NCBI GenBank assembly: GCA_030407315.1
Contig: JALQPE010000104.1
Coordinates: forward strand, 1 to 64,000
Source: Asparagopsis taxiformis
Lineage: Eukaryota > Rhodophyta > Florideophyceae > Bonnemaisoniales > Bonnemaisoniaceae
DNA: 64,000 nt
Direction of reading: 5' to 3'
Shown in pieces: positions 1,481 through 20,620 of the stretch. The translations under genes and the position numbers were made by a program. Each line of letters begins with the position of its first letter. Position 1 is the stretch's first letter. The notes under the pieces are model-generated. The model worked only from the letters and a program-made list of their open reading frames with translations. It was not told the DNA's origin and did no database searches.

Positions 1481-1491
1481 GCAGTTCTCGA

Positions 1492-3746
1492 TCACATGTA
1501 TTCCATCATTTGTAACAGCCTCTGTTGATAGTTTTGCATACATTGCGGACGTGTCCGGAATTGATCTGCTTCACGCTCAATTTGCAATCTCCAAGTCGAC
1601 TGGTCGGACGATGTCAGAGCATAACAGCGGCATTCTAATATGGTGCTATTATTTTCTCGATGTCTTTCGATCAGGCAAGTCATGCTTCCGACTAGTTGTT
1701 GCAGAGCATTGCCGATTTCGTTGAGAATATCCTCAGGGAAACAAGCCCTAGCTCAGCGAAGAAGCAAATCGAGGCACGCTAATGTCTTAATATCCAATTC
1801 CGTAGCAGCTAGACATGCACGCATTTCTAGCTTCGCAAGATCCCGAGCAAATCGCCATGAAAGTACGGAACGCGTCTGCAGCAAGATCATATCGACCCAG
1901 ATCTCTTAGCTGCACAGCAGATAGCTGGGCAACCTTCTGCGGAAATGATGGAGATGCGAAAGATGCAGTGTTGACGAATAGTGTGCATCGGAATTGCATG
2001 ATGAGCAAGGAGTGGGGTGGGTCGGTAGATTCGGTGTAAGCGGGCATGAGTTTTGAGCTTGTGGTATAATTAGGACGCGAATAGCCCGGATGGCATATCG
2101 TTGGGTTGCACAAGCGCAGTGTGTCTGTGAAGTGCAACGCGGCAGTCTAGATTATCTGTGATGTTGAAGTTGTGAAGCGGGCGGGTGCAAACGTGTGTGA
2201 GGAGTAGTAAGTGATTGCTGCTGATTGTAGACTCTGACGACATTGGAAGGGCATGATCAAGTAGCGCAGAGCTATGGGTCCGAGAAAATTGAACTTGTCC
2301 TTGAGCTGCAGGACTGCGCTTTCTTCAGAACCGTTTTGCGCATACTGTTTTGGAGCCTCAGTTTCCGCAGATATTTGACTCTGATTTCCACTAGTAGTAC
2401 CTTTTTCAAAATACAATGGAGAGTCTGTAGACTCTCCAAACAGAGCGTCTACCGGCAATTTTTAGTTCATAGTCGGTAGCGTTGCTTAGACTCTCACATT
2501 GCAGCTTTTGTGCATAGAGCTGTGGTTGGTACTCAGAATTCGGGTGATGCCCAGCATGTAATTCATTCGCCAGAGATGGTTGATAAGAAAGCGGACCGTG
2601 CTCCCTTCCCAGAGCTGTTCCAAACAGTCCTTGTAAATGCAGCCGTGATATTTTCTTAGGGTCTCTTCCCAGGGATTCAGGTTGCGGACTAGAGCTTAAA
2701 CAGTATGCAATGAGCTGAGACATTTTTTGTCGTGCAGCAGCATGTTACCTTGCCAGTTCTAGTAGATCGGATCGCCTGAGCGACACCACAGAAGCTTGCA
2801 GCGTATGAGTACCAGATTTTCTGGCAGGATAAGGAAGTTCCCAGTCGAGCCGATGTATTCATAGATGCAACCGTGAGTTAGTAGGGCGCGGAGAGTTTGT
2901 CTTGTTTGCATACCACCTCGCAAATTTTGCGAAGCTGAGGACTCTGCAAACTTCCGTTGCTCCAGCACATTGTAGTGAATCGTCTGCGCCTTTCGACAGC
3001 GGTTTGATGGGCTATGCATCGGTAATTGATTTGTCTGAAAATTCTTTTGCACATTGTTTGGTTGAGGAGCCACTTGGTTTTGCTGCATTCGCTTTATCAA
3101 CAAGCTTGCCTGTGGTTCTTTCAGTATCAGCAGGGAGTTTGTCAAATGTTGTTGATGCGCTAGACGGGCTTCTTGTGGCTGTACATTTTGCTGACCGACA
3201 GGACTTGATTGTGGTTGAACCATTCTAGTACCATGCTGCTGCGAGAAGCTTCTATTCTGCGACATCTGTTACACATTTCATGCGTAATGAATGAAGGATT
3301 GACTGACGGTTGATAGCGGCTCCGGATGAGTTCTGGCTGGAGTAGTATTCAAATGAAGCCAGAGGTTCACATGGAGGCGGAAGTCCACATCAGTACGTTT
3401 GGTTGTGGGCGAGCGACGGAGGTCTATTTTGCTTCTACGCTTTTGGCTTTTGGCAGCGACGCGCGAAAGCGATGCTGCGCCCCGTATCGTATGCACGCTT
3501 AGTAAGCGCTTATGGGTAGCAGACTGTGCAATTTTCAAGTGAATTCCAACGAGTCCGCCAGTCGTTACACAGCCTCCCCTTCCACTTCTGTCCGATAGGA
3601 GCCCCCATGTACATCACGTTTTCGCCGAGCAGTTTAGTGTTGGCTTTTAATGTATTCCAGTTGGACAGAGGCAGTTGCTGTAGCAACGCGCTGGATGTAT
3701 TCATGGTACAGACCTTATGCAAGATCAGCATGTGAGTGTCCGTCAA
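1492..3746 (-). pseudogene. Possible degenerate Gln-rich gene
   Basis: Several consecutive minus-strand open frames (3746-3510, 3265-2759, 2723-2406, 2458-2147, 2137-1787, 1683-1492) sit head to tail in different phases. The 3265-2759 segment is Gln-rich, with many QQ and QPQ pairs in its first 90 residues. Short Gln-containing peptides recur in the last segment. This could be a low-complexity regulatory protein broken by frameshifts, or a real gene with several introns. I do not recognise the family, and chance open frames are not excluded. Confidence 0.2.
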
Positions 3747-5050
3747 TTAAAAGATCCAGTTGAGGGAATTGCTCTGCACAACTCGATCACTGAGGTGATT
3801 TACTGCGATGACGGGGCAGATGCAGCCAATGGTTGAGAGCATTAAGTGGTTCAACACGCAAATGAAATCGTCATTAATCAAGCCCGTCGACGGATGAAAC
3901 GCGCGAAAAAATTGTTAGCAGTGCCACAATTTTGATAACGCATAGACTCAGAGCGTGATCGCAACGATGCGCCCAGAATCCGTGAGGGGGAAATGGATGA
4001 GTAGGAATGTGTATCGGGATTCAGAGTCGCAGATCGATATTGTTAGAAGTAGGAAATAACAAACCGTCAATGATAGAGAAGGGAGCGCGCAAACCATACT
4101 TTGATGAATGCGAGCGGAAGGAGGTTGGTACATCATCTCGTGGATATTGTGGAGGGAGGTGTTGAAGAGTGTGCGTCGACGTTCTGACACATTGCGAGAG
4201 ACCCTTAATAGTAATCAAAACTTGTAAATATAAAAATGTGCACCACGTGGCGCCATATGCAATTGTATGGAAAAATGTGCGTTCATCTCTCGCTTCGCTG
4301 CCTCAACTGGCCTTGCGTGCTTACTGAAAGCTCAGACCACTGGTTCCCATCGTCCTCGAGCCCGACTCGTCATCTTTGCTCTCCATATTATCACCCTTTC
4401 TTGATCCTCTCCTCTACATTGCAATTCGTCTGGTGAAACCGCACACAACGGAACATGCCACCAGACCTAGACCTGGACTGCAACCCTGCCCATCCTCTTC
4501 CCTATTTCCCAACTCACGAGCACTACCCTCAATCCTCGATGAACTAGATGCGCCAGCACACCACGATGGTGGCAATGGTCTGTGCGAGTCCTAAACCAGT
4601 CCTCCCGTCCGCCCTGACGTGACTTCCCTTGGAATGCGTCTCATGTTACTCGCATTCAACGCAGAAATTCATCCTCTAACGCTTCTCCGCGACCAAGACG
4701 CACCAAATCGCGACAATGTACTTCGCGTTCGTTGCGCGTGGTGTCGGCACTTTCTCGCCCATCGCGATGCGTCACAATCGCGCTTTCGTCACCACGCACC
4801 ACAAAGCCCCCGCATCCTTCAACGCCCTTTTCTGCGTGCGATGCCTGGGTGTGAACATTCCGCGCATATTCATGAATAGCACCTTATTTACTACGTTCAG
4901 TTTGCCATGAACTGTTCCAATAGCGATGCGTTCGCCAGACAACAATTGCATGCATCAATGCATGTCAAATTTGACACACAATAGAATGGTCTCCGCAATA
5001 TATTAGACTTCGCTCGCAACGGTTCTCAACGTGGCATCATTATGTTTGAT
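3747..5050. other. Intergenic, no supported gene
   Basis: Only short overlapping open frames occur on both strands. None has a recognisable motif or a convincing start context. I see nothing repeated elsewhere in the window. Confidence 0.45.
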
Positions 5051-5061
5051 GTTATGGTCAC

Positions 5062-5647
5062 TTAGCTTCTTGAGATTACATATGACAATTTGAACGGCTC
5101 TTGACATTCAATAATTGTTGATCTTCTGAATCCAACGATAGTCAGTGCCCAGTTGCATCGCCTCATCTGTCCTATCCGTACAAACAAGAGGCCATAAGAC
5201 GTTTTCCTCCACGTAACATTCAGCGATTTCATTGTCGCATCGTGTCTATTGAATATCGTAATCCTGCGTATTCTTAAACTCCTCTCCATTACTCTCCAGC
5301 ATTCGACCATACCACATGAATATCTGCGTCTACTTTCTCGCCAACCTTCGCCTACATCAAGCACCAGGTCATGAACGCCCAATCCGTACCACTTACTACC
5401 CGCACCGCCCACCTCCCTATCAGTGGTCACTAGGCAGTTGTTCTCCAGCATGCCTACAATCGCCTTGATCTCTTCCTTGCACACGCACCATATCCTCCGC
5501 AGTGTGTCCATGGGAATGTCGGTTCGTCTCCTCACGACGTAACAATGAGCGGAACACGTCGGGTGCACTTAGTTGTCTGCAGTGCAGATAGACGCACAGT
5601 GTGACTCTGAGTGTAGCTACCGGAACAGGTGGGAAGGAAATAGACAC
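5062..5647 (-). pseudogene. STAND/NB-ARC-like NTPase fragment (winged-helix part)
   Basis: The minus-strand frame contains DIPMDTLRRIW followed ~20 residues later by a segment ending in GLGVHDLVLD. This is the layout of the winged-helix region that follows the NB-ARC module in APAF-1/plant-type STAND proteins: a short helix after an acidic DxP, then LxxHDLVxD. The upstream part is in another frame (5647-5420), so at least one frameshift is present. No P-loop or sensor motifs remain; the fragment stops where the 404-aa gene locus begins. This is probably a broken fragment of an innate-immunity or scaffold-type NTPase. Family assignment rests on a short motif only. Confidence 0.4.
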
Positions 5648-5728
5648 GTTTTATCGTTTGAATTGTATTCAGTATATAGAAGGGATAGAAGATGAGATAT
5701 TTTCTTTCTTTGTCTCATGCGAAAGTTA

Positions 5729-6943
5729 CTATTTGTCCATAGTGAATCGTAGCAGACCTTCTTTGATACGTGTTATGTCCTCTGCAAGAATTGTTTTGTC
5801 ATCAGACAAGTTTTTGAAAGTCGTTAGTATAGACGATGCGGCAATTTCCGATGTCCAGGGAGAATCTGCTCCACTGTTTGTGAGCCTATTAAGATTTTTG
5901 TACTTGCTTTTGTACGTATCGTCTCCCTCTCTTCCGTACCACGCAACAATCAATCCCGAAAATGATTTGTTTTCAGTATGATGAGAAACAATTCTGGCTA
6001 GCCAGAATGGTTCTTTTGAATCACATTGGTCTCCAACTACGGCCACGAAGTGGTCTCTGATGTATACATGATCCATGAAATTACTTTCAAGAGTTGTCTG
6101 CACAATAGGATGTGCTAATGAGTCACTATTTGGTGGAGTGCAGACTGTTATTGGTCGTATCATTGTCCTCATTGAGCGCTGGTGACGACTTCCAGTTGTC
6201 AAAGATGGAATACCTCTCCTACGACCCTGCATCCATCTCGAAAATCGAAATGCGACACTCAAAAACTCATAACAGACTTCTAGACCCTGATACACCAGAA
6301 CTTTTTCCCCTTTTCTATTCAAAGCTGCCATTTTGTTCAAAGCATTTCCACGCACGTCCTCGCTTCCGCGTAGTAAAACCTTTGCGTCTTCTCTTAGCTT
6401 TTGTAAGTCCATCTTAGCAAAGCAGCTCTGGCCACCGCGAGGAGAACAGCACTTCCAGTTTTTCGGATCATTGGAGAGTAAATCCTGCAGTCTTCTTTTC
6501 CGATTTGTAAGGACATTGGCTGGGGTCTTTCGGTGACGATCAATATTCCGTTTTGTAACGATGTGCGCAGTCACCGGTACGGTTGACCTAACAGCGGGGT
6601 GATTTCGATTTACAAGCGCAATGGGAGATGTGGGATGTACTGGGCTTGGTGAGGGCGGCGCGGAAGGTGCTGGAGAAGGAAATATGTGCTCTGAAATTGT
6701 ACGTGATGAGGATGCCGCCTCAGAATTTGGTGTTCGATGTCCAGGTGATGAATCTCGGATATTTTGGGTCAAATTTTGGATTGATTTTCTTGTCAGAAAT
6801 GACTTCCGTGGAGCTTTTGAGGCAGTTGTTTTCCGAGCTCTGGAAGCAGTATTGCGAGGAGCTTTTGTGGCCCTCTGCTTCCGAACAAGGTTTTCACGTG
6901 CAGATACACTTCTGCGACCTGAGCATCTTGGTTTTGTCGACAT
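5729..6943 (-). CDS. Core-less paralogue of the DDE transposase (404 aa)
   Basis: The frame starts at ATG 6941-6943 and has no introns. Residues 1-160 are Arg/Lys/Ser/Pro-rich and look disordered. Residues 165-245 (a Cys-Cys pair, then SCF, then VCYEFLSVAFRFSR) align with residues 205-285 of the 888-aa transposase encoded at 11920-14586 (CCS..KCF, then VCYRFLELCFKFSR). Residues 298-337 (HFVAV...PFWLARI...LIVAWY) align with its residues 785-826. The ~500 residues in between, which hold the zinc-binding cysteines and all D/D/H catalytic residues, are absent. It therefore keeps a possible DNA-binding or targeting part and the Tudor-like part but cannot cleave DNA. An internally deleted copy is the simplest origin. 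Repressor or accessory function, as for the KP protein of Drosophila P elements, is inference. Confidence 0.7.
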   Translation of the reverse strand: MSTKPRCSGRRSVSARENLVRKQRATKAPRNTASRARKTTASKAPRKSFLTRKSIQNLTQNIRDSSPGHRTPNSEAASSSRTISEHIFPSPAPSAPPSPSPVHPTSPIALVNRNHPAVRSTVPVTAHIVTKRNIDRHRKTPANVLTNRKRRLQDLLSNDPKNWKCCSPRGGQSCFAKMDLQKLREDAKVLLRGSEDVRGNALNKMAALNRKGEKVLVYQGLEVCYEFLSVAFRFSRWMQGRRRGIPSLTTGSRHQRSMRTMIRPITVCTPPNSDSLAHPIVQTTLESNFMDHVYIRDHFVAVVGDQCDSKEPFWLARIVSHHTENKSFSGLIVAWYGREGDDTYKSKYKNLNRLTNSGADSPWTSEIAASSILTTFKNLSDDKTILAEDITRIKEGLLRFTMDK

Positions 6944-7991
6944 GTTGTTCTTTCAACGCAATGGATTAGGATATCGACAAGTTGTTCGATGTTTTCAGCT
7001 ACCACTTCGACTCGAGGTTGTACAGTTGATAGCTAGTATGCGAAAGGGAATGATTATTAATCCACTCATATCGATCTTCCTTTAAATGAAAGTAGTGGTA
7101 GTGAGAACCGCGCTGTATATCTAAATTGAATTGTTCTTTACTCTACTTCTAAGTATAGATTCCACCACTCCTGTGGAAGGATATTTTACACACTTGCTTA
7201 GCTCGGAAACAAATATCATCCGTACAGCCTCATTGACCTATTCACAGATATTGATATTCGGATGAATAGCTGGAAGATGTTCCAAACACGTGTCTCCTTA
7301 GAACGCATGTGTATGGATAGCAACAGATAATATCTATCATACGTACCCTTCTCAGTGAAGCTGACAGGTGAATGTATAAGCTGGTTTTGTACTGGTTTTT
7401 CTGTAGCGAATCAGATTTTTCAAATTTGTGAATCATTTTGACTGTAAATAACTACTGTGTATAGATTCACCGGGCCAGTAATATGATCATACTGATATTG
7501 ATGAAATACAAATATTTTGCTCCTCTCATTGACACATATGTGAAACCCTAAATTCAACTGCATAACACCTGTGGTTCAATTCCTGTGTTACACAGAGGCT
7601 TTAGCCACTCTTGTGATCAGCAACCCCTGATATCCTTTAATCAAATAGTCTTTTGTGTATTTACGTTCTGTTCCGTGCAATTCTGGTGTGTTGTATGATT
7701 AGCTGTGGTTGATGAAATAGTAGCGTTTGGAGAAAGAAGAGCTTATCGTCAGAGTTGAGAAGGGATGACGTTAACATATTTGAATGGGCCAGGAGATATA
7801 GGAATGGATCCAATCAATTATTGGATGAAACTAGTCGTTTCTTAGAACAAAACAAATTACAAAATACTCCACTTCTGGGTAATGTTGATATTTCCTAGCT
7901 AGCCGCCGAGTAAGTATCAGAACTGCCAGATTATCCTCTTGGTTCTTACGGGGATTTGCAAAATTTACTTGGCTACGAAATTCATTTGGCT
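6944..7991. promoter_or_regulatory. Divergent intergenic region between the 404-aa gene and the methyltransferase
   Basis: This ~1-kb AT-rich stretch separates two genes that face away from each other, so it should hold both promoters. I see several TATA-like AT runs but cannot single one out. A tRNA B-box-like string (GGTTCAATTCC, near 7571) has no matching A box or acceptor stem. In-frame codons run upstream of the methyltransferase ATG to 7956, but no ATG is present there. Confidence 0.35.
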
Positions 7992-10883
7992 ATGAAGGGG
8001 AAGAACTTAAGGAACTCTTCGATGAGAACCCCTCATTCTAGTGTCAACCAGAATGCATCAACACCTCTTTTCTCCGACGTTATGGAGGGGTCTGTTAACA
8101 CTCGTGTAGACCCACATGCTTGTATTCCTCTAACCTGCGTAAGAGATCTTGTTCGTTCTGGAGTTGATAGACTCAAATGTGTATTTGGAAACAAAATTTC
8201 GAATCGTTCGGGCGTTGCTTTTGACCTCAATTCTGGTGGTGGATTTGTGGCTGGTTCTGATAATGCCGTTGTTGTTGCCTTGACAGGTGGATTGAAAAGA
8301 CACGTTGTAGACCACTTCAAAACTGGTCCTCATAACAACCGGCATCCAATGTCGGAATCACAAGCGAAAGAGAAGGAAGAGTCTCGAGCTGTCTGGTATG
8401 GGGTAGTAGACGGAATGCACAGGCTTACGGCTATCCTGGAGCTCATGGAAGAAAATCCGGAAACGTGGGAGTCATTTCTCTGGCCGGTTACAGTCCTCAA
8501 AGGTGGCCAAAATCTACAGGTTCTTAGACAACTCGGAAGACACCAGAACAACAAGCACAACTCCGCTTTCTACATTGAAACAACATTCTATGATATGCTT
8601 TCTGGCCTCCGGAAAGAGGCTGATCGTCTCAAAAGTATGAAGAATGGGAAGCAACCAACAGCTAAAGAAATTGCCTCTGCCTTTGACGGCTGCACTCATC
8701 TCAAGGACAATACCACAAAGCAAACAGCAGCGACTTCAGTCCGTCTTCCAGTTTCGGTAATTGAGGAGATTGGTCATATCATGAACTCTGAGCACCCAGA
8801 ACTGACTGCGTCAGAATCAGATCGTTCTGGTAGGACCTCGCACATTTCTGGACTGGTTGACTTTCGGGTCTACCGGAACTTCATCAACATTACTACTATT
8901 AAGTCTGCAACAAACTTCATGAATGCCAGTGGAGCAGACTCTGAACAAAACCAGATAAATACGCTGTATAGACTTCGTGATGTGTGCAGAATGAACAAGT
9001 TCAAACCTGTCTCATATAAAATTGCTGCAGAACAGTATGTCAAGGCCTGTTCTGCAATGAGTGAGGCAAGGAAGTTCGAATTACTCATAGAAAGTGAATC
9101 ATGGCCGGCTGGAATGGAAGTAACCAGAACAAATTTGCTCCAATCATCTAAACTCGATGAGGAAGTTACTGCAAATTCTGGAAATGACCATGACATCTTA
9201 AAAACTCTTCTTCACCAGTACAGAAAGATATGTCCCGAAACTGCTCCACTAAAAGAGCGAAAGTACTCTGAAGCTCACTCAATGGAGGTCAAAGATGGAA
9301 CAGAGACTGATTCAGAAAATTGTGATGGGAAAAATTTAGCCTGTACGGGAACGGAATCGGAAGAACAAATTATAGAAAAGAATCGGAGCATACATACAGA
9401 CACTTCTGTTATACAGTCAGGCAAGGAACCCTTGCCAGAGAAAGTTGTGAACACCAATTCAAATGCAGACCAGTATACTGAGCAAGTTGATTCAAACTCG
9501 CCTAGAAGTGCTCAGAATGATGTCGACCTGGAAAAATACCAGAACAATAAGATTTCAGGAAAACACACAAATCCCCCTGTCTCGAGTGCTAACTCTGAAC
9601 GCCTGAATACAAGAAAGAAAGGATCTGAAAGCTTCGCCCTTGAGGAAGACAAGACTGACTATTTGAAGGAGATGAAGATAAGCTGTCATCAAATGAAATG
9701 GCAACTGTTTGATAAGACTGTATGGACAGATGAATCTGAGCTTTTTGACATGATTCTCACTGATCCGCCATATGGAACACCGAAATCCACCTCGGTTCGG
9801 TCTGCTTCTTATGACAACTTCATAGGAGATGATGAGATCAAAGCGGTTTGTCAGTTTGCTAGAAGAGTGTTGAAACCCGGTGGATGGTTTTTTTCCTTTG
9901 TCTCATTCCGGAACTTCGAGAAATTCTACGATGAGCTCAGAAAAATCGGATTCGTTGGACCAGAATACCCGTATGTGATGATGAAAGATACGAAAACAGT
10001 CCAGCACCACAGGGGTAACGACGTTCCCCAGAACGGGTGTGACTTCGCAGTACTGGCTAGGGCTCCAGGAACAAGAAGAGATGGTTTCAAACCAGATCTT
10101 TCCAGTCCATATAATTTCATTCCCTCAAAAGAGAAAAGGAAGTTCGCTGCTCTCTCTAGCATTCCAGTTTCAAAGGAGAAGCTTCTAAAGCCAGGTTCAA
10201 AATCTCCAGTTCTCACTGAGGAGAAGAACATTGGACTTCTTGCTGAGATAATAACTACTTTCTCACCAGAACGAGGTAACATTCTGGATATGTACGCTGG
10301 TACATTTACGTCAGCCATTGCTTCGCTTCGAACCGCACGGTCTTGCACTGTAGTGGAATCTAGCGCAAATACGTTCCGCCTAGCTCACGAAAGGCTTCGT
10401 CTTGTGGCCCAAATTTTCTATCAGGAAGCGGAGAAAAACCAGTGCTTCACGAAGAAAAGAAAGATTGATCCAAATCTGGTGAAAGATACTACGGCTTCCG
10501 GAAGATCACTGCAAAATCACAGGGAGTCCCAGGCGGAAAAGGGAATGGATGAATCTTCATGTGTGGTCAAAGGTGGAGATAGAGCACTTCTTCTTATAGG
10601 GGATGTAGTTGTCGGTAGCGCAACTATACAGAACCCGACAATTCCGGAGGAGATGTTCTGTTTTTCGATACACAACAGTCCTCTTGCCAATTTCCAAAGA
10701 GTCAATGAACAGTTGGTTTCATGTTACGCTTTCCAAGTGCTACCAGAAGCTAAAAGTATCAAATACCCCTACAAATACGGCGGCATCGAAACACCGCCGG
10801 AAACACTTGGTGGAATAGAGGGATTTTTCGCTTGGGATGCTCGAAGAATGAAATCTATTGATTCTACAGAACGAGCTGCATGA
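7992..10883 (+). CDS. ParB-like domain fused to DNA N6-adenine/N4-cytosine methyltransferase
   Basis: The 963-aa frame starts at ATG 7992, which is preferred over an upstream TTG at 7956. N-terminal part: VVDGMHRLTAIL around residues 138-149 matches the ParB/sulfiredoxin-like box (acidic-G-x-HR-x-x-A). A charged linker (residues ~400-560) follows. The methyltransferase has motif IV DPPYG at 591-595, a downstream VLKPGGWF strand typical of the family, then motif I as ILDMYAGTFTSAIA at 764-777 and an acidic E789 after the next strand. Motif IV before motif I is the beta-class permuted order of N6A/N4C enzymes. The last ~130 residues are an unrecognised extension. In phages and bacterial mobile elements, ParB-like plus methyltransferase fusions modify DNA; here the gene is intron-less and 1.0 kb upstream of a transposase in the same orientation. 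Role inferred: methylation of element or target DNA. The glycine-poor motif I (AGTFT) may weaken cofactor binding. Confidence 0.8.
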   Translation: MKGKNLRNSSMRTPHSSVNQNASTPLFSDVMEGSVNTRVDPHACIPLTCVRDLVRSGVDRLKCVFGNKISNRSGVAFDLNSGGGFVAGSDNAVVVALTGGLKRHVVDHFKTGPHNNRHPMSESQAKEKEESRAVWYGVVDGMHRLTAILELMEENPETWESFLWPVTVLKGGQNLQVLRQLGRHQNNKHNSAFYIETTFYDMLSGLRKEADRLKSMKNGKQPTAKEIASAFDGCTHLKDNTTKQTAATSVRLPVSVIEEIGHIMNSEHPELTASESDRSGRTSHISGLVDFRVYRNFINITTIKSATNFMNASGADSEQNQINTLYRLRDVCRMNKFKPVSYKIAAEQYVKACSAMSEARKFELLIESESWPAGMEVTRTNLLQSSKLDEEVTANSGNDHDILKTLLHQYRKICPETAPLKERKYSEAHSMEVKDGTETDSENCDGKNLACTGTESEEQIIEKNRSIHTDTSVIQSGKEPLPEKVVNTNSNADQYTEQVDSNSPRSAQNDVDLEKYQNNKISGKHTNPPVSSANSERLNTRKKGSESFALEEDKTDYLKEMKISCHQMKWQLFDKTVWTDESELFDMILTDPPYGTPKSTSVRSASYDNFIGDDEIKAVCQFARRVLKPGGWFFSFVSFRNFEKFYDELRKIGFVGPEYPYVMMKDTKTVQHHRGNDVPQNGCDFAVLARAPGTRRDGFKPDLSSPYNFIPSKEKRKFAALSSIPVSKEKLLKPGSKSPVLTEEKNIGLLAEIITTFSPERGNILDMYAGTFTSAIASLRTARSCTVVESSANTFRLAHERLRLVAQIFYQEAEKNQCFTKKRKIDPNLVKDTTASGRSLQNHRESQAEKGMDESSCVVKGGDRALLLIGDVVVGSATIQNPTIPEEMFCFSIHNSPLANFQRVNEQLVSCYAFQVLPEAKSIKYPYKYGGIETPPETLGGIEGFFAWDARRMKSIDSTERAA

Positions 10884-11919
10884 GAAATCGGAAATTTCAT
10901 CTTTAGTTTCTTTGAAATCAGATCTAGAGGGTGCAAAGACATCAAACTTCATTTGATACTTCCCGTTCTAGTACCAAGCCTCGCACACTGAAATGATCAT
11001 TCTTTCAAGATTAGAATCACTGCCACTATCGAATTCACACCAGATTCAGGTGCCAGGTTCTACAATTGACTCCTCATCGATAGTAACAAAGAAGAACGCC
11101 TTTTCACTCCATGGCAGGCAAGTAATAGTCCTGTCTCAACCCGGGATAGAGTGATTTCTTCCCTCTAGATATACATACCTACTCTCCTATGTGTCCAGAG
11201 GCTCCTGGTTTGGGAGAGAAAAACATGACCAGTACTACATGAACATAGGAAGATGGGACCGATCATTCAGAATATGGAAAACTTTTGAGAAACGATTCAC
11301 AAATTATGAATGGTTGAACGCAGTCTCGTACTCAGCAGCTGGTTGATTCTTTAAGAAGGTAGCGCTTTCTGCCGACCAGCTAGATAAAATTTTAAGTGAT
11401 AAATTGATACTAACATGCACACCACAGATTTGCGAACGTATAAGACCGGCTGGTGCACCATCACAGAAACAGTTCAGTGTGCTAAAGGGGCTTTTCGATA
11501 GCATCAGAATTCTTTAAAACGTTCAACAGCAGCAGATACGCACTGTGGCAGAATTCTTGACGTGCCAGAATCATACCGTTTCACTGATTTCCTCCTGAAG
11601 GTAAGATTTCTTCTGCAAGGCTTGCAATTTAATTTAACTCCAACAGATCAACATGTAAGTGATTGAAGGAGTGCTCTGGAAATTTTGGCGGCAGTTGATG
11701 AATATGGTCCCCTTATCTACCAGAATACAAACATGTACATTTCATAGATTTCCTCATTCGTTCTAGGAACCTTTTCTCACACCCAAAGTTTCCTCGTGTC
11801 TTTTTTTCTTGCTGAAAACCGCAGATGCCTGTGAAAGAATCTATCGTTTCTCTTTCCAATTAATCTGCAAGCACGTCATTCCTGTCTCTCCAGCCCTTTC
11901 CCGCAGTGCAAATCGAAAT
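10884..11919. other. Intergenic between methyltransferase and transposase
   Basis: No gene is seen. The interval ends with a TTG-led in-frame extension (from 11809) of the transposase that lacks an ATG, so a 5' leader or an unseen small exon is possible. AGAATTC or CAGAATC-type words recur near 11030, 11508, 11550 and 11568. They might be methylation or binding sites, but they are too short to call. Confidence 0.35.
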
Positions 11920-14586
11920 ATGGGAACAAAAGAACCACTTCCTAAAGACGTACGGGAACAAATGAGAGTCCACGCAGAGATCATTGTCTCTTCCCTTTCA
12001 AGATGTATGAAATGTGATTATGAGGTGAAATCTCATCCTGAGACGCCCCAGAATATCGCTGACGTTTCAGAACCCAACTTCAATTCTGGAAAACATACCG
12101 ATGACAAGCTCAGAAACCACAGGAATAACCGACTTCTTCCAGAGAAACCAAAACAATCTTTAGTGAGCCCAAGCAGATCAGCTACTTTGTTTCCTTCCAA
12201 ATCTGGATTTGTGCAATCAAATTTGCTACGATGGTTTGATTCTGCTTCCAAGAGTTCTGCTAGTTCTTGTGGAAACCACAATCGACAAGAATCAAATTCT
12301 CGCACGACCAATACATCGTACTCGCTGGAGACAGAATGTCCGCAACAAACTAACCTCCCATTCCGACAAGCTAAAACAGTCTCCGAAAACGCATCACCTT
12401 CTATGCTCAAGAAGCGAAAAACATACCAAAGTCAAGAACGGAGCAATAAATCAGGCAGAGAAAGCGAAATGAAAAAACGTAGGAAGAACATCGCTTCCAC
12501 AGTTTCAGTATCCCGCTTAGCAGGGAACAAGTGCTGTTCAAAAAAAAAGTGCTTCCAGAATGTTGACCTCATATTCCTCCAGAATGAAGCATTTCGGGTA
12601 TTGCAATGGGATCAAGAGAAACGACGTACCTATCTCCACAGCCTTCTTGAACCAAACTCGAATGTTTTCCACTTTTCAGGCATACCTGTCTGCTACAGGT
12701 TTCTAGAGCTATGTTTCAAGTTTTCAAGATCACTGCAAAGTTCTGTCAAGAGTAGGCGGGTTCTTTCTCTTCTATCCAATCCCAGGGATTTTAAATCAAA
12801 ACAGAGAGACGCAGTTGTTTGCTTTCTTGATAGGCTTTCGGAGTCTACAGGAGACAGAATGCCCGATAACAACGAGAGGCACTTGCCATTATTCCAAAAG
12901 AAGGCTGTTTACGAAATGTTTCGAAGTCAACACAAGATTCTTTACCCTAGCCAGAATGTACCATCTCTGAGCTATTTTTACTCTACATGGAAAACTTTTT
13001 GCAGTCATGTGAAAGTAAGACGCGTTCAGCGGTTTACCAAGTGCACAGAATGTGAATATATCCGGGATTCGCTGGCCAAGTTCGGGTCAGATCCCTCCAA
13101 AGCTGAACCATTGGTATCGAGAAGGAAAACTCACATCGAAATGGTTGCGAGAGAGAGAAGAGAGTACCAAAGTAAATGCGAGCAGGCTGCATTATTTCCA
13201 TCCCAGTTTACTTCAATGATTATCGATGGAGCGGACCAGTCTGGTTACGGTCTGCCCCATTTCACGGTGAACACCAAGGCAACAAATGGGCACAGTCTGA
13301 AAGTCAAACTGGTTGGTGTTCTAGAACACGGCGTAAGGAAACACCTTTCTCTGTATACGATGACATCAGAGTTTGAGACAGGTGCAAATCACATTATTGA
13401 ATGCTTGCACCGCACACTCCAGAGGAAGTCAACAGGATCGTCATTACAGGGTACACTCTACCTCCAGGTGGATAACTGTACCCGCGAAAACAAGAACCGA
13501 TTCTTATTCTGTTATTTAGAATCACTGGTTGCATGGGGAGTTTTCAAAGAAGTGTACATTTCCTTCCTTCCCGTCGGACATACTCACTCAGATATTGATC
13601 AAGCATTTAGTTGTACATCTCGTCGTTTGCGTTCGAACAATGCAGTAACGATGGAAGATCTCATGCACGAGTTGCGTCAATCATACACACCAGAGCCCTC
13701 AGTTTCTAGACTGCTTCACATCGCTAACTTCTCGGGGCTCTGTAAGGAGCAGAGTTCTATCAGTAACGTGGAAAATTTTTCAAAGTATCGCTACTTCCGG
13801 TTTTTCAGATGCAATCATCGTTCTGGTCGGACTATGACTGATTCTGGTCATGGAAAAATGTATTTCATAACTGCATGCGAGTGCAAAGTGTTTTGCAATG
13901 ACCAATGGGAGGAACTTCAGGCAAAACCAGCAGGTGTTCGAGGATTTACAATCCGTCCTCCTGATCTTTGCATGACCCCTGGAACGAAAACGTTTTCTCC
14001 TCCGAATAGAAAAGAGGTCTTGGAACGTCTGCGGTCTGAGGAGACTAGAATAAACAGTCCATCCAAATTACAGGAACTTTATGAGTTGACGGAACATGTA
14101 TACAATGAGAGAACTGAAACATTTCATTGGAATTTACAGGTTTGCTTCGAGTACAATGGCATATATCGCCCAAATGCCCGAAGTTTACAATGGAATGAAG
14201 ATCATGATGAAAGTGAGCAGCGCTTTGAAGACAATGATGAGCCGTTGAGTAATCTTAGCTATTCAATTAATCATTTTGTAGCTGTCAATGGTGAGGGTTG
14301 TACTGCGAAACAGCCATTCTGGTTGGGACAAATACTTGAATGCAAGAGAAATACAGGGGGTGTCATCAACACATTAATAGTGAGGTGGTATGAAGTTTGT
14401 GGATCAGGGAACGCATGGAACGGGAGATACTCACCAGCAACTCTGGTCAAGGGGAATTCAAGGAAAGAATGGAAGGGTCTCATATCGGTTGATTCTGTTA
14501 TAGCCGAATTTCCTTCACTAACAAACAAAAGACTTAGAGCTGGGGTAGAAAGAGAGATAAGATCCGGGCTTGCTTCGCTTCAGTGA
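11920..14586 (+). CDS. DDE/RNase H-fold transposase, DUF7869-like, with Tudor-like C-terminus (888 aa)
   Basis: Start chosen at the first ATG (11920). Residues 1-200 are Ser/Lys-rich and likely disordered with basic clusters. Residues 205-285 form a Cys-containing domain shared with the 404-aa neighbour. Near residue 375, CTEC is a C-x2-C that could bind zinc. The catalytic core shows D436 in MIIDGADQS, D518 in LQVDN followed by a conserved E-N-K-N, and a third cluster GHTHSDIDQAF (H554, H556, D558, D560). This spacing and the GHTH-x-DID-x-F signature are those of the DUF7869 family, an RNase H-like transposase/integrase domain common in algae, oomycetes and invertebrates. Residues 785-826 (HFVAV..PFWLGQI..LIVRWYE) look like a Tudor/BAH-type chromatin reader. 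The frame is uninterrupted and all acidic residues are present, so it may be active. It follows the methyltransferase in the same direction. Confidence 0.75.
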   Translation: MGTKEPLPKDVREQMRVHAEIIVSSLSRCMKCDYEVKSHPETPQNIADVSEPNFNSGKHTDDKLRNHRNNRLLPEKPKQSLVSPSRSATLFPSKSGFVQSNLLRWFDSASKSSASSCGNHNRQESNSRTTNTSYSLETECPQQTNLPFRQAKTVSENASPSMLKKRKTYQSQERSNKSGRESEMKKRRKNIASTVSVSRLAGNKCCSKKKCFQNVDLIFLQNEAFRVLQWDQEKRRTYLHSLLEPNSNVFHFSGIPVCYRFLELCFKFSRSLQSSVKSRRVLSLLSNPRDFKSKQRDAVVCFLDRLSESTGDRMPDNNERHLPLFQKKAVYEMFRSQHKILYPSQNVPSLSYFYSTWKTFCSHVKVRRVQRFTKCTECEYIRDSLAKFGSDPSKAEPLVSRRKTHIEMVARERREYQSKCEQAALFPSQFTSMIIDGADQSGYGLPHFTVNTKATNGHSLKVKLVGVLEHGVRKHLSLYTMTSEFETGANHIIECLHRTLQRKSTGSSLQGTLYLQVDNCTRENKNRFLFCYLESLVAWGVFKEVYISFLPVGHTHSDIDQAFSCTSRRLRSNNAVTMEDLMHELRQSYTPEPSVSRLLHIANFSGLCKEQSSISNVENFSKYRYFRFFRCNHRSGRTMTDSGHGKMYFITACECKVFCNDQWEELQAKPAGVRGFTIRPPDLCMTPGTKTFSPPNRKEVLERLRSEETRINSPSKLQELYELTEHVYNERTETFHWNLQVCFEYNGIYRPNARSLQWNEDHDESEQRFEDNDEPLSNLSYSINHFVAVNGEGCTAKQPFWLGQILECKRNTGGVINTLIVRWYEVCGSGNAWNGRYSPATLVKGNSRKEWKGLISVDSVIAEFPSLTNKRLRAGVEREIRSGLASLQ

Positions 14587-14613
14587 TATTTTGTTAAAAG
14601 TTTACTACGCCTC

Positions 14614-16776
14614 TTGCCATTCAACCAAAAATTTATCAGAACAGTAGATCAATCAACTTATTCTCATTCAGATATAGTCAGTCAACTTGGAGTAGTAATT
14701 TTGTATTCAATCATTTTTGAAAATTTAAAATTCTGTTCCAAAAAGTACATTCTGTTACCACTCAAATCAGTGTTGAATGTCGAACATGAGCCTGCTTCGC
14801 ATGGCATCCGCCGCCGTTCACAGCGACTTCGCTCGACGGGGAGCACACGCCTCGAGGAAGAAGAGCCGGTTGTGGTACAACAATCCGCCGGGGAAGAAGA
14901 GCAGGCCGTTGTTGATAAACCCACCGATCAACAACAAGCCACTGCTTCCGGTGATGAGGTTGACGAAGACTCCGCCCGTTCCCCCGATTCTGCCGTTGAG
15001 ATTGTCCCCCAAGATAACCAACGTGCTGGTGCGACTCCCTCCAACCAAGAATCTGTCCATACCGCTTCGGACGAGGAAGACAAACAGGGTGCAGACGAGG
15101 GCCAAGTCGAAAGCAAGGGGGTCCGCGAAGTGACAATTACATTCACTGTTCCGGAAGGAGTGGAAGTCGATGAAGACGGTTACATCGTTCGTGACTCTCC
15201 TTCTGAAGACGACCTCCTCTTCGACGACCGTATGCCGTCTCTTCCTGACGATTTCGAAGACCGAGCCGAAGGGCATCATCTGGCGCAGCGTCCCGCGGAT
15301 GTCATCGCATCGGTGAGGGTTGGCTGTCTGCCCCCGATTGAGCTCAGGTTGTTATTGGAGAGTGTGGAAATCGATGAGGAGGGCAGAGAGGTGAGGTATT
15401 TGAAGCAAGTGGCGATGGACCCTGTGTTTGAGGGGCTGCATATTCCGGAAGAACATCGGGCTCGTGTGCTATTCGAAATCGATCACGTCTATCCGATGTT
15501 CTTCGCAGCGTGGAAGATGGCTGCCAAGGCGATGTGTGAGCCTACATCGACGTTTCTACCCTCGAGGCTGGACTTCGCTCAGGTTGCGCGAATGTCTACA
15601 AGCTGGAAGGATTCGTATGAGGCCGGCACTGGTATGGCGTACTTCCACAATTGCCGAACGGAAATCAACGAGCGAGGGTATACGGTGATGCACAATTTCG
15701 CGGATGTAAGCTACCTAGATGCGTCGGACAAGTTCCCATTTGACTTGGGTCTCATGGAAGAAATTCCTAACCAGGAATTGTTTCGGTACTTTTTGGGAAC
15801 GTGGGAGGGGGAGCAGGTGCACAAGGACCCTGGGAACCGGCAGCTGTGGAGTCCCATTGTCAATACGGGGGACGATGAAACAGACGAGAAGAACCGGAAT
15901 GAGGGGAGGGCTCGCTTCACGTCTACGCGCCACTGCCTGGTTGACTATGCCGAGAACGATGAGACGCATATCGACCGGTTCAAGTTTGTGACGCGGCGAG
16001 CCCTGCTGGATGTGTGGTTGGGAATCCTTGTCCGGCTGATAGGGCTGGAGGAGTGCGGTTTACCGGGAGAAAAACTTGTCATGCCGGCATCTGGGGGACG
16101 GTTTTTGATAACGGGAAAGGGGTGTCCTCGGCAGGTCCCACACAATGATTTCCCTGTTCCTCCTCGCGACCGCAAATATCAACTTCCGGGTTACTTTGTT
16201 ATTGCCAACGGAGATGACCCATTCCCTATCTGGGTGTGTCCAGGGTCCCACAAGTACGTCTTTTCCAAAGCGCTGGAATTAGATATGTACGCCAAGACGA
16301 TGAAGCTGAAGAAGGTAATCGTTCCGCCACGTTCAGTCTTCATCGGTCACGGCCATGTACAACATGCCGGGGCAGGGCATGTCGACAGAGTTGTGTCACA
16401 CACGACAACGAGGTATCACACGTATTTCAGGAATGCGTCGTATCCGATTCCCGACAATGTTTCGTTTGGTTTCATCAGGCGGTTGGGATTCGAAGAAGAA
16501 GTCATCGCCAATGCTCCGCGCCGGTCTGCAAGGCAAAGTCAACCGGCACCTGTCAATGTTCGCCACAAGACAGTTGTTCCCATCCCGGTCAAGAAAGATG
16601 GTAGGCCGAAGACAGGGCAGCTCCGAATGATGCGGATGAAGACGACAGAACCTCGCAAGGATGTAATGCACACACCGAGTGTGGCCCCGGTAGTGCCTCT
16701 TCTGCCGGGACAACCTGGATATCTAGTTCACTATCATAGTGAGGACGAAGAGGAAGAACAGTTTTCCGACGGCTAG
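14614..16776 (+). CDS. 2-oxoglutarate/Fe(II) dioxygenase, PhyH-like (up to 720 aa)
   Basis: The open frame runs from 14614, but no ATG lies before residue ~205. The real start is therefore upstream through an intron or lies in a short 5' exon; codons from ~14770 look coding. Order: a basic patch (RRRSQRL), a long acidic/Ser stretch (~80-230), then a globular domain. H510-N-D512 gives the HxD iron triad start, H584 (QHAGAGH) is the distal His, and a downstream R in TTRYHTYF fits the 2OG-binding Arg. This order, H-x-D then H then R within ~90 residues, is the phytanoyl-CoA-hydroxylase/TET-JBP-like jelly roll. The C-terminus is basic and contains GRPK, a weak AT-hook-like core. DNA modification or demethylation would fit its neighbours, but small-molecule hydroxylation is equally possible. 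Its coding GC content is higher than that of the methyltransferase and transposase, so it may be an unrelated gene. Confidence 0.6.
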   Translation: MPFNQKFIRTVDQSTYSHSDIVSQLGVVILYSIIFENLKFCSKKYILLPLKSVLNVEHEPASHGIRRRSQRLRSTGSTRLEEEEPVVVQQSAGEEEQAVVDKPTDQQQATASGDEVDEDSARSPDSAVEIVPQDNQRAGATPSNQESVHTASDEEDKQGADEGQVESKGVREVTITFTVPEGVEVDEDGYIVRDSPSEDDLLFDDRMPSLPDDFEDRAEGHHLAQRPADVIASVRVGCLPPIELRLLLESVEIDEEGREVRYLKQVAMDPVFEGLHIPEEHRARVLFEIDHVYPMFFAAWKMAAKAMCEPTSTFLPSRLDFAQVARMSTSWKDSYEAGTGMAYFHNCRTEINERGYTVMHNFADVSYLDASDKFPFDLGLMEEIPNQELFRYFLGTWEGEQVHKDPGNRQLWSPIVNTGDDETDEKNRNEGRARFTSTRHCLVDYAENDETHIDRFKFVTRRALLDVWLGILVRLIGLEECGLPGEKLVMPASGGRFLITGKGCPRQVPHNDFPVPPRDRKYQLPGYFVIANGDDPFPIWVCPGSHKYVFSKALELDMYAKTMKLKKVIVPPRSVFIGHGHVQHAGAGHVDRVVSHTTTRYHTYFRNASYPIPDNVSFGFIRRLGFEEEVIANAPRRSARQSQPAPVNVRHKTVVPIPVKKDGRPKTGQLRMMRMKTTEPRKDVMHTPSVAPVVPLLPGQPGYLVHYHSEDEEEEQFSDG

Positions 16777-17039
16777 ATATCTTAACAACAACTACTTTAG
16801 CAAACAATTATCGAGAATATAATCATCTCCTTTATCACTTTCAATCTATGAACCTACTATAATGCACTTCCGTTCCATGCTTTCAAACTAGATTGTCCAT
16901 TCCCTAGTGGGTTGGAGCATGATTCCAGGACGATTCCCTCACATCTCTAGACTCGATGGTCTATGCTAGAAATAGCAGAACAATTGGGTTTATACGTGCT
17001 TCATCGCCAACTTGCTTCTGGTAATGGCTGGACGTGCAC

Positions 17040-18966
17040 GATACACGATCACCTGAAATGGACGTCCGGTGGATGTCCAACTCAGATGCATTCCTGGCCG
17101 GCCCAGAAATTCTACAATTTCGGGCACAAAAAAATATTGCAAAAAACATCGATTTGGGCGGTCGATTGTGCCGTACGGCACACCCCCATCTCAAAAACAT
17201 GTTCACATGTGCATGTTTTTGAGAATAGCCCAAATTTTAATTCAAATCAGGGTGTCTAATTTGGCCACAACGGCCCCAGGCACCGGAACCGCCGCCCCGA
17301 GCGGGGTCATCACTGGCTTCTGTAAGCACTAACTGTAAGGCTAAATGGCGCCTAACGATGGGTCGATTCCAGGCTTCAAGCCTAAGTTATGCTAGGGTGA
17401 CATCGTTTCCCCTGTTCCATCATGGTCCTGCCTTACTCCTCCACGACAAACACTACTCACCCATCACGTTACTCGTATTCCGTGCACTTTGTATGAGTAG
17501 TGAACTCGCCTGCTTAGTTGCTGCAATGCGTGGATGTAGGCAGCACACGACCAACCTGAAATGGACGTCCGGTGGATGTCCATCTCAGATGCACTGCTGG
17601 CCAGCCCAGAAATTCTACAATTTCGGGCACAAAAAATCTTGCAAAAATCAACGATTTGGGCGGGTCGATTGTGCCGTACGGCACACCCCCATCTCAAAAA
17701 CATGTTCACATGTGCATGTTTTTGAGAATAGCCCAAATTTTAATTCAAATCAGGGTGTCTAATTTGGCCACAACGGCCCCAGGCACCGGCCACCGGCCCC
17801 GATCGGGGCTATCACTGGCTTCTATTAGCACCAACTGTAAGCCAAAATCGCGTCTCACGAAGGGTCGATTTCAGGCTCAATACGCCAGGGACAGGTCTTG
17901 GTCCTTGTTCCATCATGGTCCCGCCCCGCTCTCTCACGACCAACCTGAAATGGACGTCCGGTGGATGTCCAGCTCGATTGCATTGCTGGCCAGCCCAGAA
18001 ATTCTAAAATTTCGGGCACAGAAAAATATTGCAAAAAACATCGATTTGGGCTGTCGATTGTGCCGTACGGCACACCCCCATCTCAAAAACATGTTCACAT
18101 GTGCATGTTTTTGAGAATAGCCCAAATTTTAATTCAAATCAGGGTGTCTAATTTGGCCACAACGGCCCCAGGAACCGACCGCCGCCCCGAGCGGGGTCAT
18201 CACTGGCTTCTGTAAGCACTAACTGTGAGGCTAAATGGCGCCGAAAGATGGGTCGATTCCAGGCTTCAAGCCTAAGTTATGCTAGGTACGCATCTTCTTC
18301 CGTGTTTCATAATGGTCCCGCCTTACTCCCTCAACACAAACACTACTCACCTATCACGTTACTCATATTCCGTGTACTTTGTATTAGTAGTGAACCCGCT
18401 GGCTTAGTTTCTGCAATGCGTGGATGTAGGCAGCACACGACCAACCTGAAATGGACGTCCGGTGGATGTCCAGCTCAGATGCACTGCTGGCCAGCCCAGA
18501 AATTCTAAAATTTCGGGCACAAAAAATCTTGCAAAAATCAACGATTTGGGCGGTCGATTGTGCCGTACGGCACACCCCCATCTCAAAAACATGTTCACAT
18601 GTGCATGTTTTTGAGAATAGCCCAAATTTTAATTCAAATCAGGGTGTCTAATTTGGCCACAACGGCCCCAGGAACCGACCGCCGGCCCCGATCGGGGGCT
18701 ATCACTGGCGTCTGTAAGCACCAACTGTAAGCCGGAGCCGGCTGCCGCCCCGATCGGGGCTATCACTGGCTTCTATTAGCACCAACTGTAAGCCAAAATC
18801 GCGTCTCACGAAGGGTCGATTTCAGGCTCAACACGTCAGGGAAAGGTCTTGGTCCTTGTTTCATCATGGTCCCGCCCCACCCTCTCGCGACCAACCTGAA
18901 ATGGACGTCCGGTGGATGTCCAGCTCGATTGCATTGCTGGCCAGCCCAGAAATTCTAAAATTTCCG
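17040..18966 (+). repeat. Array of a structured hairpin repeat (4 full copies, 1 truncated)
   Basis: Five same-strand copies begin with a near-palindromic GGACGTCCGGTGGATGTCC. Four continue through a conserved core at 17152-17235, 17654-17738, 18044-18127 and 18544-18627; the fifth (18896-18966) ends inside the first hairpin. In the core, ATTTGGGC pairs with GCCCAAAT about 70 bases later. Between them lie a perfect 16-bp palindrome (TGTGCCGTACGGCACA) and a 12-bp-stem hairpin (CTCAAAAACATG / CATGTTTTTGAG). Copies alternate in spacing (~500 and ~390 bp), giving a ~890-bp higher-order tandem. No coding potential is seen. Confidence 0.85.
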
Positions 18967-20295
18967 AAAAATCAATTTGGTGGCCCAGCATCTCCTGTGC
19001 CGAAAATTCCCGCACTCAGTTCTGATATACGTCTAGACGTGTTTCCCACTTGTACGCATCAGGGAAGGCGTCACGGAAGGTTGACACTACGCTACTTGTG
19101 TACCGCGTCGTCTGAAATAGCGAGTAGTGTTTGTTGTATAGTTGTGGAGTATGCGTCTAGTGGTTTGTAAAGCTTGCAGAACGGGATAGGGATGTGGGTG
19201 GCCCTATTTTATGAATACATGAGTACCAATATTCAGGGTTGACAAAGCGGAAAGGCATAGGCTCATACATGTTTGAGATTGCATAGTAGAGAAAATATTT
19301 TCATCGAAATTTACATGGAGCTGATGGAGGTTTTAAGGATGAGGTATGAGAGGAAGAAAATTCTTCTGTGGTATGAGGATGTGTTCTGTGGGGGGATGGA
19401 ATCTTGGGATGGTACAGGGGGAGGTGGAAATGTACGGAGTGCGGGTTTAGAATGGATTGTGATTCGGAGAGGAGTGCCGACAAGCATATTATGGGGATTG
19501 GGGAGACGCTGCGGGGTGTTGGGGTAGTGAGGGCGGAGGAGGTGTTTAGGTGGGACCGTAGGAGGGTGCGGTTGAAGGCGCCGAGAGGAGGGGTTTTTAG
19601 GAAAGTGAGGAGAAAGAAGGGGAGGGGGTGGCGTCTGTTCTGGCTGTGGTGAGTGGGGATGTGATGGAGAAGAAGGGGGTTATTGTATTTGGGGAGGGAG
19701 GGGAGTGGGAGGAAGGGTGCGAAGTGGGGGGTTGATATGTGTTTCAGAGCGGGGAGGTTTCTGGGGATACGGCGGGGGAGCCACCCCGCAGTGCGGGAGC
19801 GTGGGCCGGTGGTGGTGGTGTATACGGTATCGAAGATGCGGATGGCGTGGGGGCATGGAGCAGCTGAGGGAGGGAGGGGTGGAGCAGGTCGGGTACGGGA
19901 TGGGGAGTGAGAGGTTTTGGAAGAGTAAGCTGCAGGGGAAGTTTGTGTAGAGGGCGAAGGAGAGGGGTTGAGGGTAGAGGAGAGAGGGTACTGAAGAACA
20001 ATACGTTTCAAAGGTGATGGGGGAGAGCATGGTCGAGGAGATAGGTGGTGTTTTGCCCTATTCTGAGGTAGTATGAGGACTGGTTATACGAAATCTGTAC
20101 GGTAGAGCAGAAAATTAGGTATGGAATGGAGGTGTGCACCGTGGAAGCGGGGATAGGTATCTGAAAATGCGTGCTAGAGTGGTATTGGGGGTGTTTGAGG
20201 TACAGTACGGGGGAGGTGAGCACCAACAGGAAGGGGGTGTGAGCGAGAGGATGAAAAAATTAAAGACGAAATTGGAGTCGACCGACAAGGAAAAA
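18967..20295. other. Purine/G-rich stretch, no supported gene
   Basis: From about 19310 to 20000 the plus strand is strongly G- and purine-rich, with runs such as GGGAGG and GTGGGG. The long proline/serine-rich minus-strand frame here (20011-19301) is what such skew produces and is not supported as a gene. I see no repeat unit. Confidence 0.5.
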
Positions 20296-20620
20296 TAGAG
20301 TGGTCGCCGTGATGGATGCGGACATCCATGTCGAGCACGGCGGCAGAAATTTCTGGGGTCGAAATTTTTGAATTTCTGAACCGGCGCCCGTCCTAGGTGG
20401 ACATAGACATGGCGGAAGTCCATCCCGAGGGGGACATCCGTGGTACTAGAAACAATGAATGTCGCCCTAGTAATACTAGACGTACTAGACCGCATGGACG
20501 TCCGGTTCTAGGCGGACATCCAAAAATACTGGAGAACATGGACGTCCGCCTAGTAATACTAGGTGTACTAGAGGTTGTGGACGTCCGCGTCCATTTCCGA
20601 GAACACAGACGCACGGAACG
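20296..20620. mobile_element. Right-hand end of an unidentified element (GGACGTCCGC subterminal repeats)
   Basis: The last ~330 bases before the antisense retroelement ORF contain repeated TGGACGTCCGC and CTAGTA(A/T)TACTAG words. They end in TTCCGAGAACACAGACG. The same end (TTCCGAAAACACAGACG) abuts a different retroelement copy at 31353. Read from the minus strand, both junctions start CGTCTGTGTT. The element body and its other end were not found. The element cuts the antisense ORF of copy C. Confidence 0.5.

What the first reader, a model, noticed from the sequence alone, without database searches (positions are those of the whole stretch)
5650..16776. A transposase locus that also encodes a DNA methyltransferase and possibly a dioxygenase
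Seen: three intact frames in one direction (ParB-methyltransferase, DDE transposase, 2OG-Fe(II) dioxygenase) plus a core-less transposase relative facing the other way. Known: some eukaryotic mobile elements carry DNA-modifying genes (TET/JBP-type dioxygenases with KDZ transposons, methyltransferases in DIRS-like and certain retroelements). I know of no described DUF7869-type transposon with a ParB-type adenine/N4-cytosine methyltransferase. Inference: the element may write a base mark on its own DNA and read it through the Tudor-like end of the transposase; the dioxygenase could remove or alter the mark.
Basis: partly seen in the sequence, partly recalled or inferred. Interest (0 to 1): 0.85.

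Follow-up and report, generated by a model that had tools for sequence, protein, structure and literature searches.

The report
Algal transposon carrying a DNA methyltransferase
A 17-kb jumping gene of a red-algal-type genome carries its own bacterial-style DNA methyltransferase and sits inside a second, larger jumping gene that owns the neighbouring oxygenase gene; such methyltransferase-bearing transposons are already reported from algae, but the conserved three-gene unit found here makes self-marking of mobile DNA testable.

Summary
The methyltransferase (MT), the DUF7869 transposase and the core-less transposase relative lie in one repeated unit, element A. It is 17.16 kb, has inverted terminal repeats and a 4-bp target duplication, and 12 other places in the genome end at the same base, window 14774. 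Its left end lies 2.4 kb beyond the contig start. The dioxygenase frame is NOT part of it: A is inserted into the ParB-like/oxygenase gene of a second high-copy element, a 23.1-kb Plavaka transposon (P), which itself encodes a DNA-methyltransferase–SET fusion. MT and transposase belong together: three sister families with MTs 54–58% identical keep the same core-less | MT | transposase order, the same right terminus and TGATTGA repeats, under purifying selection. Still, only 31 of 150 scored DUF7869 hits have a scored MT within 10 kb, both lists being capped. ParB–MT genes in algal DNA transposons are already in print (Sola1-1 of Ectocarpus, with citations for green and red algae: PMC12477816), so this is a new variant of a known kind. 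What the mark does is inference; I favour self-marking of the element by 6mA.

The parts
1..14774 (+). Element A, part lying in the window (the left 2375 bp are beyond the contig start); whole element 17,161 bp in copy C1919:32183-49343
   Evidence: 12 of 18 DNA matches end exactly at 14774, none goes beyond; flanks differ right after it; left end in other copies
5729..6952 (-). Core-less transposase relative (407 aa): Cys-rich N-terminal part and C-terminal BAH-like part, no DDE core
   Evidence: BLASTP to transposase, two stretches at 32%; 100% over 407 aa in 10 of 104 matches, the window's own included; C-terminal relatives in the same place in family E
7914..10883 (+). ParB-like + amino-methyltransferase gene (989-aa frame; first in-frame ATG at 7992)
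11767..14586 (+). DUF7869 transposase gene (939-aa frame; first in-frame ATG at 11920)
   Evidence: PF25273 E 1.1e-53; D487, D569, D609 and D611 invariant in the 16 sequences aligned; RNase H-like order in the model; positions
14704..14774 (-). Right inverted terminal repeat of element A (ends CAAATCAGTGTT)
   Evidence: 74.5% over the first 55 bp to the left end AACACTGATTT
14707..14713 (-). Subterminal TGATTGA repeat, right end
14649..14655 (-). Subterminal TGATTGA repeat, right end
14775..14778 (+). GAAT, expected 4-bp target-site copy; uninterrupted element P reads CGGAATGTCG here
   Evidence: the left copy is outside the contig, so the duplication itself was not seen for this copy
14775..20611 (+). 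Element P, right part: giant Plavaka-type transposon into which A is inserted; whole element 23,137 bp in C1593:41687-64823
   Evidence: 10 places match at 100% from 14775 to 20611-20615; left end, 47-bp TIR and Plavaka transposase PF18759 E 1.7e-24
14775..16776 (+). 3' half of the 1403-aa ParB-like/2OG-Fe(II)-oxygenase-like gene of element P, cut by element A
   Evidence: 60 of 61 matches are other places at 99%, 53 of them in a 1403-aa open frame
20565..20611 (-). Right inverted terminal repeat of element P
   Evidence: 47 bp, 87% to L052:1688-1734

Best explanation
Element A is a recently active cut-and-paste DNA transposon of about 17.2 kb. SHOWN: inverted repeats starting AACACTGATTT, a 4-bp target duplication, near-identical copies at unrelated sites, and a gene unit of core-less transposase relative (-) | methyltransferase (+) | DUF7869 transposase (+). 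That unit is kept in sister families that have diverged to about 55% protein identity. The oxygenase next door belongs to a giant Plavaka transposon (P) in which A landed. INFERRED: the transposase binds the AACACTGATTT ends and the direct TGATTGA subterminal repeats, and moves the element. The MT, probably N6-adenine-specific, is held on element DNA by its ParB-like part and marks the element's ends and promoters, so that new copies keep an active-chromatin-like state and escape silencing. The core-less protein, keeping the Cys-rich and BAH-like parts without the catalytic core, most likely competes with the transposase as a repressor or reader. Anatomy about 0.9 likely, self-marking about 0.5, core-less protein as competitor about 0.5.
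For: Ends and copies. TSD: TTCA/TTCA (C1919) and AGGT/AGGT (C90). MT inside the element and unit conserved. Purifying selection. Enzyme type. Independent data: MT P0005 and transposase P0013 are each listed with a single Logan contig, both 7926 long, so probably the same contig. Oxygenase belongs to P.
Confidence: 0.72

Rival explanations
1. The mark times transposition instead of fighting silencing: the MT methylates adenines in or near the ends (AACACTGATTT, TGATTGA), fully methylated ends are poor substrates, and hemimethylated ends after replication are cut, as Dam does for Tn10 (recalled).
For: End motifs with adenines conserved together with the MT in the five ends read; MT fold nearest to 6mA enzymes.
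Against: The target of the MT is unknown; subterminal repeats are usual transposase sites and need no methylation.
Confidence: 0.25
2. The MT is a hitch-hiking cargo gene without a role for the element.
For: Element A also carries a Sel1-repeat frame of no obvious use; giant transposons of Ectocarpus carry many accessory genes; most scored DUF7869 hits have no scored MT nearby (119 of 150).
Against: The same three-gene order in families at about 55% identity, pN/pS 0.30-0.39 with saturated synonymous sites, and a second, divergent MT/DUF7869 arrangement at 3.69 kb on 7 contigs.
Confidence: 0.12
3. MT and dioxygenase are write and erase partners of one transposon.
For: They are adjacent in the window; element P itself pairs an MT-SET protein with the ParB-like oxygenase.
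Against: None of the 18 places like element A goes beyond 14774; the oxygenase frame lies in 60 other places as part of another repeat.
Confidence: 0.04
4. Chance neighbourhood or assembly artefact.
For: Fragmented assembly (3156 contigs); some contigs end within or at these repeats.
Against: The same junctions and spacings in many contigs and several families, and MT and transposase relatives with equal contig length in Logan data.
Confidence: 0.02

Closest known systems
Sola1-1_Ec32 of Ectocarpus (PMC12477816; section 5 read in two parts, and passages)
   Same: Large DNA transposon (21.5 kb there) with a gene for a ParB-like + N4/N6 DNA methyltransferase protein of 1104 aa; the authors propose binding and marking of its own transposon and cite reports for green and red algae.
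   Different: There the MT gene is on the strand opposite to the transposase; in element A it is on the same strand, with a core-less transposase relative diverging from it. The 1106-aa MT beside a 730-aa DUF7869 transposase (C609 type) is the closer match. Whether DUF7869 is the Sola transposase could not be tested.
Giant EnSpm/Plavaka transposons of red algae (Petroll et al. 2025, cited as ref. 51 in PMC12477816; paper not held, not read)
   Same: Element P: 23-kb Plavaka-type transposon with several accessory genes in a red-algal-type genome. PMC12730594 places Plavaka in the group of CACTA/EnSpm (outline).
   Different: I could not see which accessory genes that paper lists, so the MT-SET fusion and ParB-like oxygenase may or may not be reported there.
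TET/JBP dioxygenases in fungal DNA transposons (PMC12730594; outline with abstract, and passages)
   Same: DNA transposons, Plavaka included, carrying a 2OG-Fe(II) dioxygenase that may act on base marks.
   Different: The oxygenase of P gave no significant Pfam match and is joined to a ParB-like part; no sequence link to TET/JBP was found here.
DNMTs and Dam-like MTs in retrotransposons (PMC5890265; passages)
   Same: Mobile elements that carry a DNA methyltransferase and may mark themselves.
   Different: Those are retroelements (LINE, DIRS) with C5-cytosine or Dam-like enzymes; here a DNA transposon with a beta-class amino-MTase.

Membership tests
Cut-and-paste (DDE) DNA transposon | Inverted terminal repeats | tested here: met
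   55 bp at 74.5% between the two ends of element A
Cut-and-paste (DDE) DNA transposon | Target-site duplication of fixed length | tested here: met
   TTCA and AGGT in the two copies with both flanks fully readable; C1780 agrees on the 2 readable bases; C1667 reads AGGA/AGGT at a contig edge
Cut-and-paste (DDE) DNA transposon | RNase H-like core with an acidic triad | tested here: inconclusive
Sola superfamily | 4-bp target duplication (recalled) | tested here: met
   as above
Sola superfamily | Transposase homologous to Sola transposases | not testable with these tools
   No library of transposon proteins at hand; Bao et al. 2009 not held
KDZ transposons | KDZ transposase domain (Pfam) | tested here: not met
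   P0002 matches only DUF7869 at E<=0.1
Beta-class DNA amino-methyltransferase | PF01555 domain, DPPY motif before the SAM-binding motif (order recalled) | tested here: met
N6-adenine specificity | Nearest solved enzymes are 6mA MTases; activity | tested here: inconclusive
ParB/Srx fold | ParB domain detectable by profile or fold | tested here: inconclusive
   Motif VVDGMHRL only; no profile hit; low-confidence model
Plavaka transposon (element P) | Plavaka transposase PF18759 within matching ends | tested here: met
   E 1.7e-24, 47-bp TIR at 87%; no TSD seen in the one copy read at both ends, C1593
TET/JBP dioxygenase | Profile match to TET/JBP | tested here: inconclusive
   Whole 1403-aa protein: no Pfam family at E<=0.1; its 3' half P0003: only DUF4604 at E 0.098; HND...H motif shared with P0028; not folded

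The most novel reading that the evidence does not exclude
The mobile DNA of this alga runs its own epigenome. Several transposon lineages (DUF7869 types and Plavaka types) each encode a bacterial-style DNA amino-methyltransferase, in some families fused to a SET histone-methyltransferase domain and paired with a ParB-like oxygenase. The DUF7869 unit adds a catalytically dead transposase paralogue as reader or repressor, so that writer, reader and mover travel as one conserved module that marks and controls the element itself.
Probability: 0.35. Interest if true: 0.82.

Novelty: new variant of a known kind. Interest (0 to 1): 0.52.

Why it matters
Whether mobile elements write DNA marks for their own benefit in eukaryotes is an open question. 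Here the writer, the transposase and a dead transposase paralogue are one conserved unit with defined ends and near-identical recent copies, in a genome with 150 scored matches to this MT domain (2605 candidates; many are copies of a few families). Self-marking can therefore be tested directly by mapping 6mA/4mC over known copies and by expressing one enzyme.

Tried and rejected
Dioxygenase as cargo of element A: rejected. Viral origin or viral relatives: one scan of viral contigs with the MT alignment gave 66 pattern matches and no relative by tblastn; phage tblastn with P0007 gave 172 records, the best matches covering about a quarter of the query at about 27%; PHROG 67 was the best phage profile. 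No ParB profile hit at E<=0.1. dN/dS could not be quoted as a number because synonymous sites are saturated (pS 0.78-0.90). Left ends of C1579 and C1910 were sought twice and not found. TSD of element P not found in C1593. Second-look alignment of the MT model tested mainly residues 581-836; the oxygenase was not folded (two fold jobs in all). Rfam: no hit in the window. Literature: ten searches. DUF7869 is in no held paper. In the listings I recognised no held paper on a ParB-MT transposon other than PMC12477816; most listed papers were not opened (PMC5512222 on multidomain proteins of phages and conjugative elements among them).

Exceptions to the spacing: MT-DUF7869 4 of 24 (C1837, C2228, C2198, C2105); core-less-DUF7869 4 of 34 outside 6.3-6.9 kb, though 34 of 34 are on opposite strands; core-less-MT 1 of 24 beyond 2.4 kb (C1837), 24 of 24 on opposite strands.

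Full report
What is in the window. The 989-aa frame has an N6_N4_Mtase domain (PF01555, E 9.7e-12) and the 939-aa frame a DUF7869 domain (PF25273, E 1.1e-53). The window is G000:C104:1-64000 of a 141.5-Mb genome in 3156 contigs.

Boundaries of element A. A DNA search with window 5600-17000 gave 18 places in the genome. Twelve of them end at query base 9175, that is window 14774, and none goes beyond. The six others stop earlier (C29, C1668, C902, C2411 and two pieces in C1837). The flanks just right of the end CAAATCAGTGTT differ between copies: of 11 read, the window's included, C90 and C1667 share one and C1780 shows only 2 bases. To the left the likeness runs past the start of the window. 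In copy C1919 the element begins at AACACTGATTTCGG, 2375 bases before the base that matches window 1, which makes it 17,161 bp long. The same left end was read in 6 of 8 copies tried (C1919 included); C1579 and C1910 lacked it, also on a second look. Both ends form an inverted repeat (55 bp, 74.5%). Target duplications are TTCA in C1919 and AGGT in C90, the two copies with both flanks fully read. The joined C1919 flanks rebuild a repeat of which uninterrupted copies lie at window 17035-18650. Eight copies differ from the window by 0-7 mismatches over 7.8-10 kb, so movement was recent.

The oxygenase belongs elsewhere. Searching the genome with the 729-aa frame gave 61 matches. The 60 besides the window's own cover residues 56-729 at 99%, 53 of them within a 1403-aa open frame. 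One such copy (L045) shows an N-terminal stretch also seen at the C-terminus of the MT (YPYKYGG.E.PPETLGG; E 2e-7 pairwise), then a ParB-like motif (VIDGLHRL), then an oxygenase-like HND...H part. A DNA search with window 14760-34000 put the right end of that repeat at 20611-20615 in 10 places at 100%. In C1593 the whole element P is 23,137 bp, C1593:41687-64823, with a 47-bp inverted repeat at 87%. In it lie a Plavaka transposase (PF18759, E 1.7e-24), a 670-aa frame, a 1154-aa MT fused to a SET domain (PF01555 E 4.1e-15, PF00856 E 1.1e-6) and the 1403-aa gene. The window's element A cut this gene at CGGAATGTCG, and the reading frame happens to stay open into A's last 188 bases, which made the frame look like an independent gene.

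The unit is conserved. The MT has 46 scored matches in the genome: 16 of element A, 30 of 54-58% identity; 5 of the 46 hold an in-frame stop. Three sister families read over 9-10 kb each (E: C687, C: C895, B: C589) all show core-less gene (-), MT (+), transposase (+); in C687 the core-less gene falls into two overlapping frames. Their transposase stop is followed within 150-210 bp by the same end, AAATCAGTGTT; their left ends were not reached. The five ends read (A left; A, B, C and E right) carry two or three direct TGATTGA repeats within about 125 bp, all in the same orientation, against 2 in the 14.5 kb of A's interior within the window. Over the scored hits, core-less and DUF7869 genes are on opposite strands in 34 of 34 shared contigs and 6.3-6.9 kb apart in 30. 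Core-less and MT are divergent in 24 of 24. MT and DUF7869 are on the same strand within 4.5 kb in 20 of 24 shared contigs, while 22 of the 46 MT hits had no scored DUF7869 on the contig. A further type has an MT of 1106 aa diverging from a 730-aa DUF7869 frame at 3.69 kb in 7 contigs. Seen from the other side, 31 of 150 scored DUF7869 hits have a scored MT within 10 kb and 119 have none; both lists are capped, so the true share is unknown, and DUF7869 transposons without an MT are likely. Between families synonymous sites are saturated (pS 0.78-0.90 over the pairs), while pN is 0.24-0.34 among A, B, C and E, for MT and transposase alike. In metagenome-type protein data, MT relatives (5 proteins, 43-54%) and transposase relatives (18 proteins) exist.

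Host. Phycobilisome linker genes lie on 10 contigs (13 matches), and the best has LRC3 of 5y6p as nearest solved chain (recalled as Griffithsia). A red alga is therefore likely; the species is not known.

Prior art. [quoted passage not shown] PMC12730594 (outline and passages) covers TET/JBP genes in fungal DNA transposons, and PMC5890265 (passages) DNMTs in retrotransposons. PMC12704722 (passages) says ParB-MTase fusions are frequent in phages. The two primary sources cited for green and red algae are not held. The idea is thus known; the core-less third gene, the shared ends across families and the MT-SET and ParB-like oxygenase pair are what this report adds, with the reservation that the unread papers may hold some of it.

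Reading. I take element A as an autonomous transposon whose MT marks its own DNA and whose core-less protein tempers the transposase; only the anatomy, the copy behaviour and the selection are shown. Failing to prove membership in Sola lowers the name, not the way of working.

Noticed in passing
window 22329-31364: Another repeated element of about 9 kb (6 other places at 99-100%, two of them partial) with a Plavaka transposase frame at 27237-28685 (-).
   Followed up: partly
window 31289-39387: Retroelement pieces: aspartyl protease frame (-) and a 1168-aa frame (+) with reverse transcriptase, RNase H, integrase and chromodomain.
   Followed up: no
L049:3415-6972 (C253) and many other contigs: 1186-aa frame with ParB-like motif, N6_N4_Mtase and SET domain; 1186 aa is the commonest frame length in the list of 150 scored PF01555 matches. 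A ParB-like/oxygenase-like frame is convergent to it (L049:9070-9900 and L053:3-2939, probably one frame).
   Followed up: partly
L037:2560-4221: Left arm of element A holds a Sel1-repeat frame (554 aa, PF08238 E 1.5e-22), apparently continued in another frame downstream; looks like a captured gene.
   Followed up: partly
window 2759-3268 and 5062-5568 (-): Further frames of element A without any Pfam match at E<=0.1.
   Followed up: no
L023:1-2302 (C2267): An end of the element P type (AACACAGACG) sits inside element A's left arm at the base matching window 3731: the two kinds of element jump into each other.
   Followed up: partly
P0016 residues 52-155: A DUF7869 transposase from Logan data is fused to the small domain found at the C-terminus of the MT (E 2e-15) and, as a shorter match, at the N-terminus of the ParB-like oxygenase: YPY.Y.G.E.PPE.LGG.
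   Followed up: partly
window 41766-43502 (-): 578-aa open frame without Pfam match.
   Followed up: no
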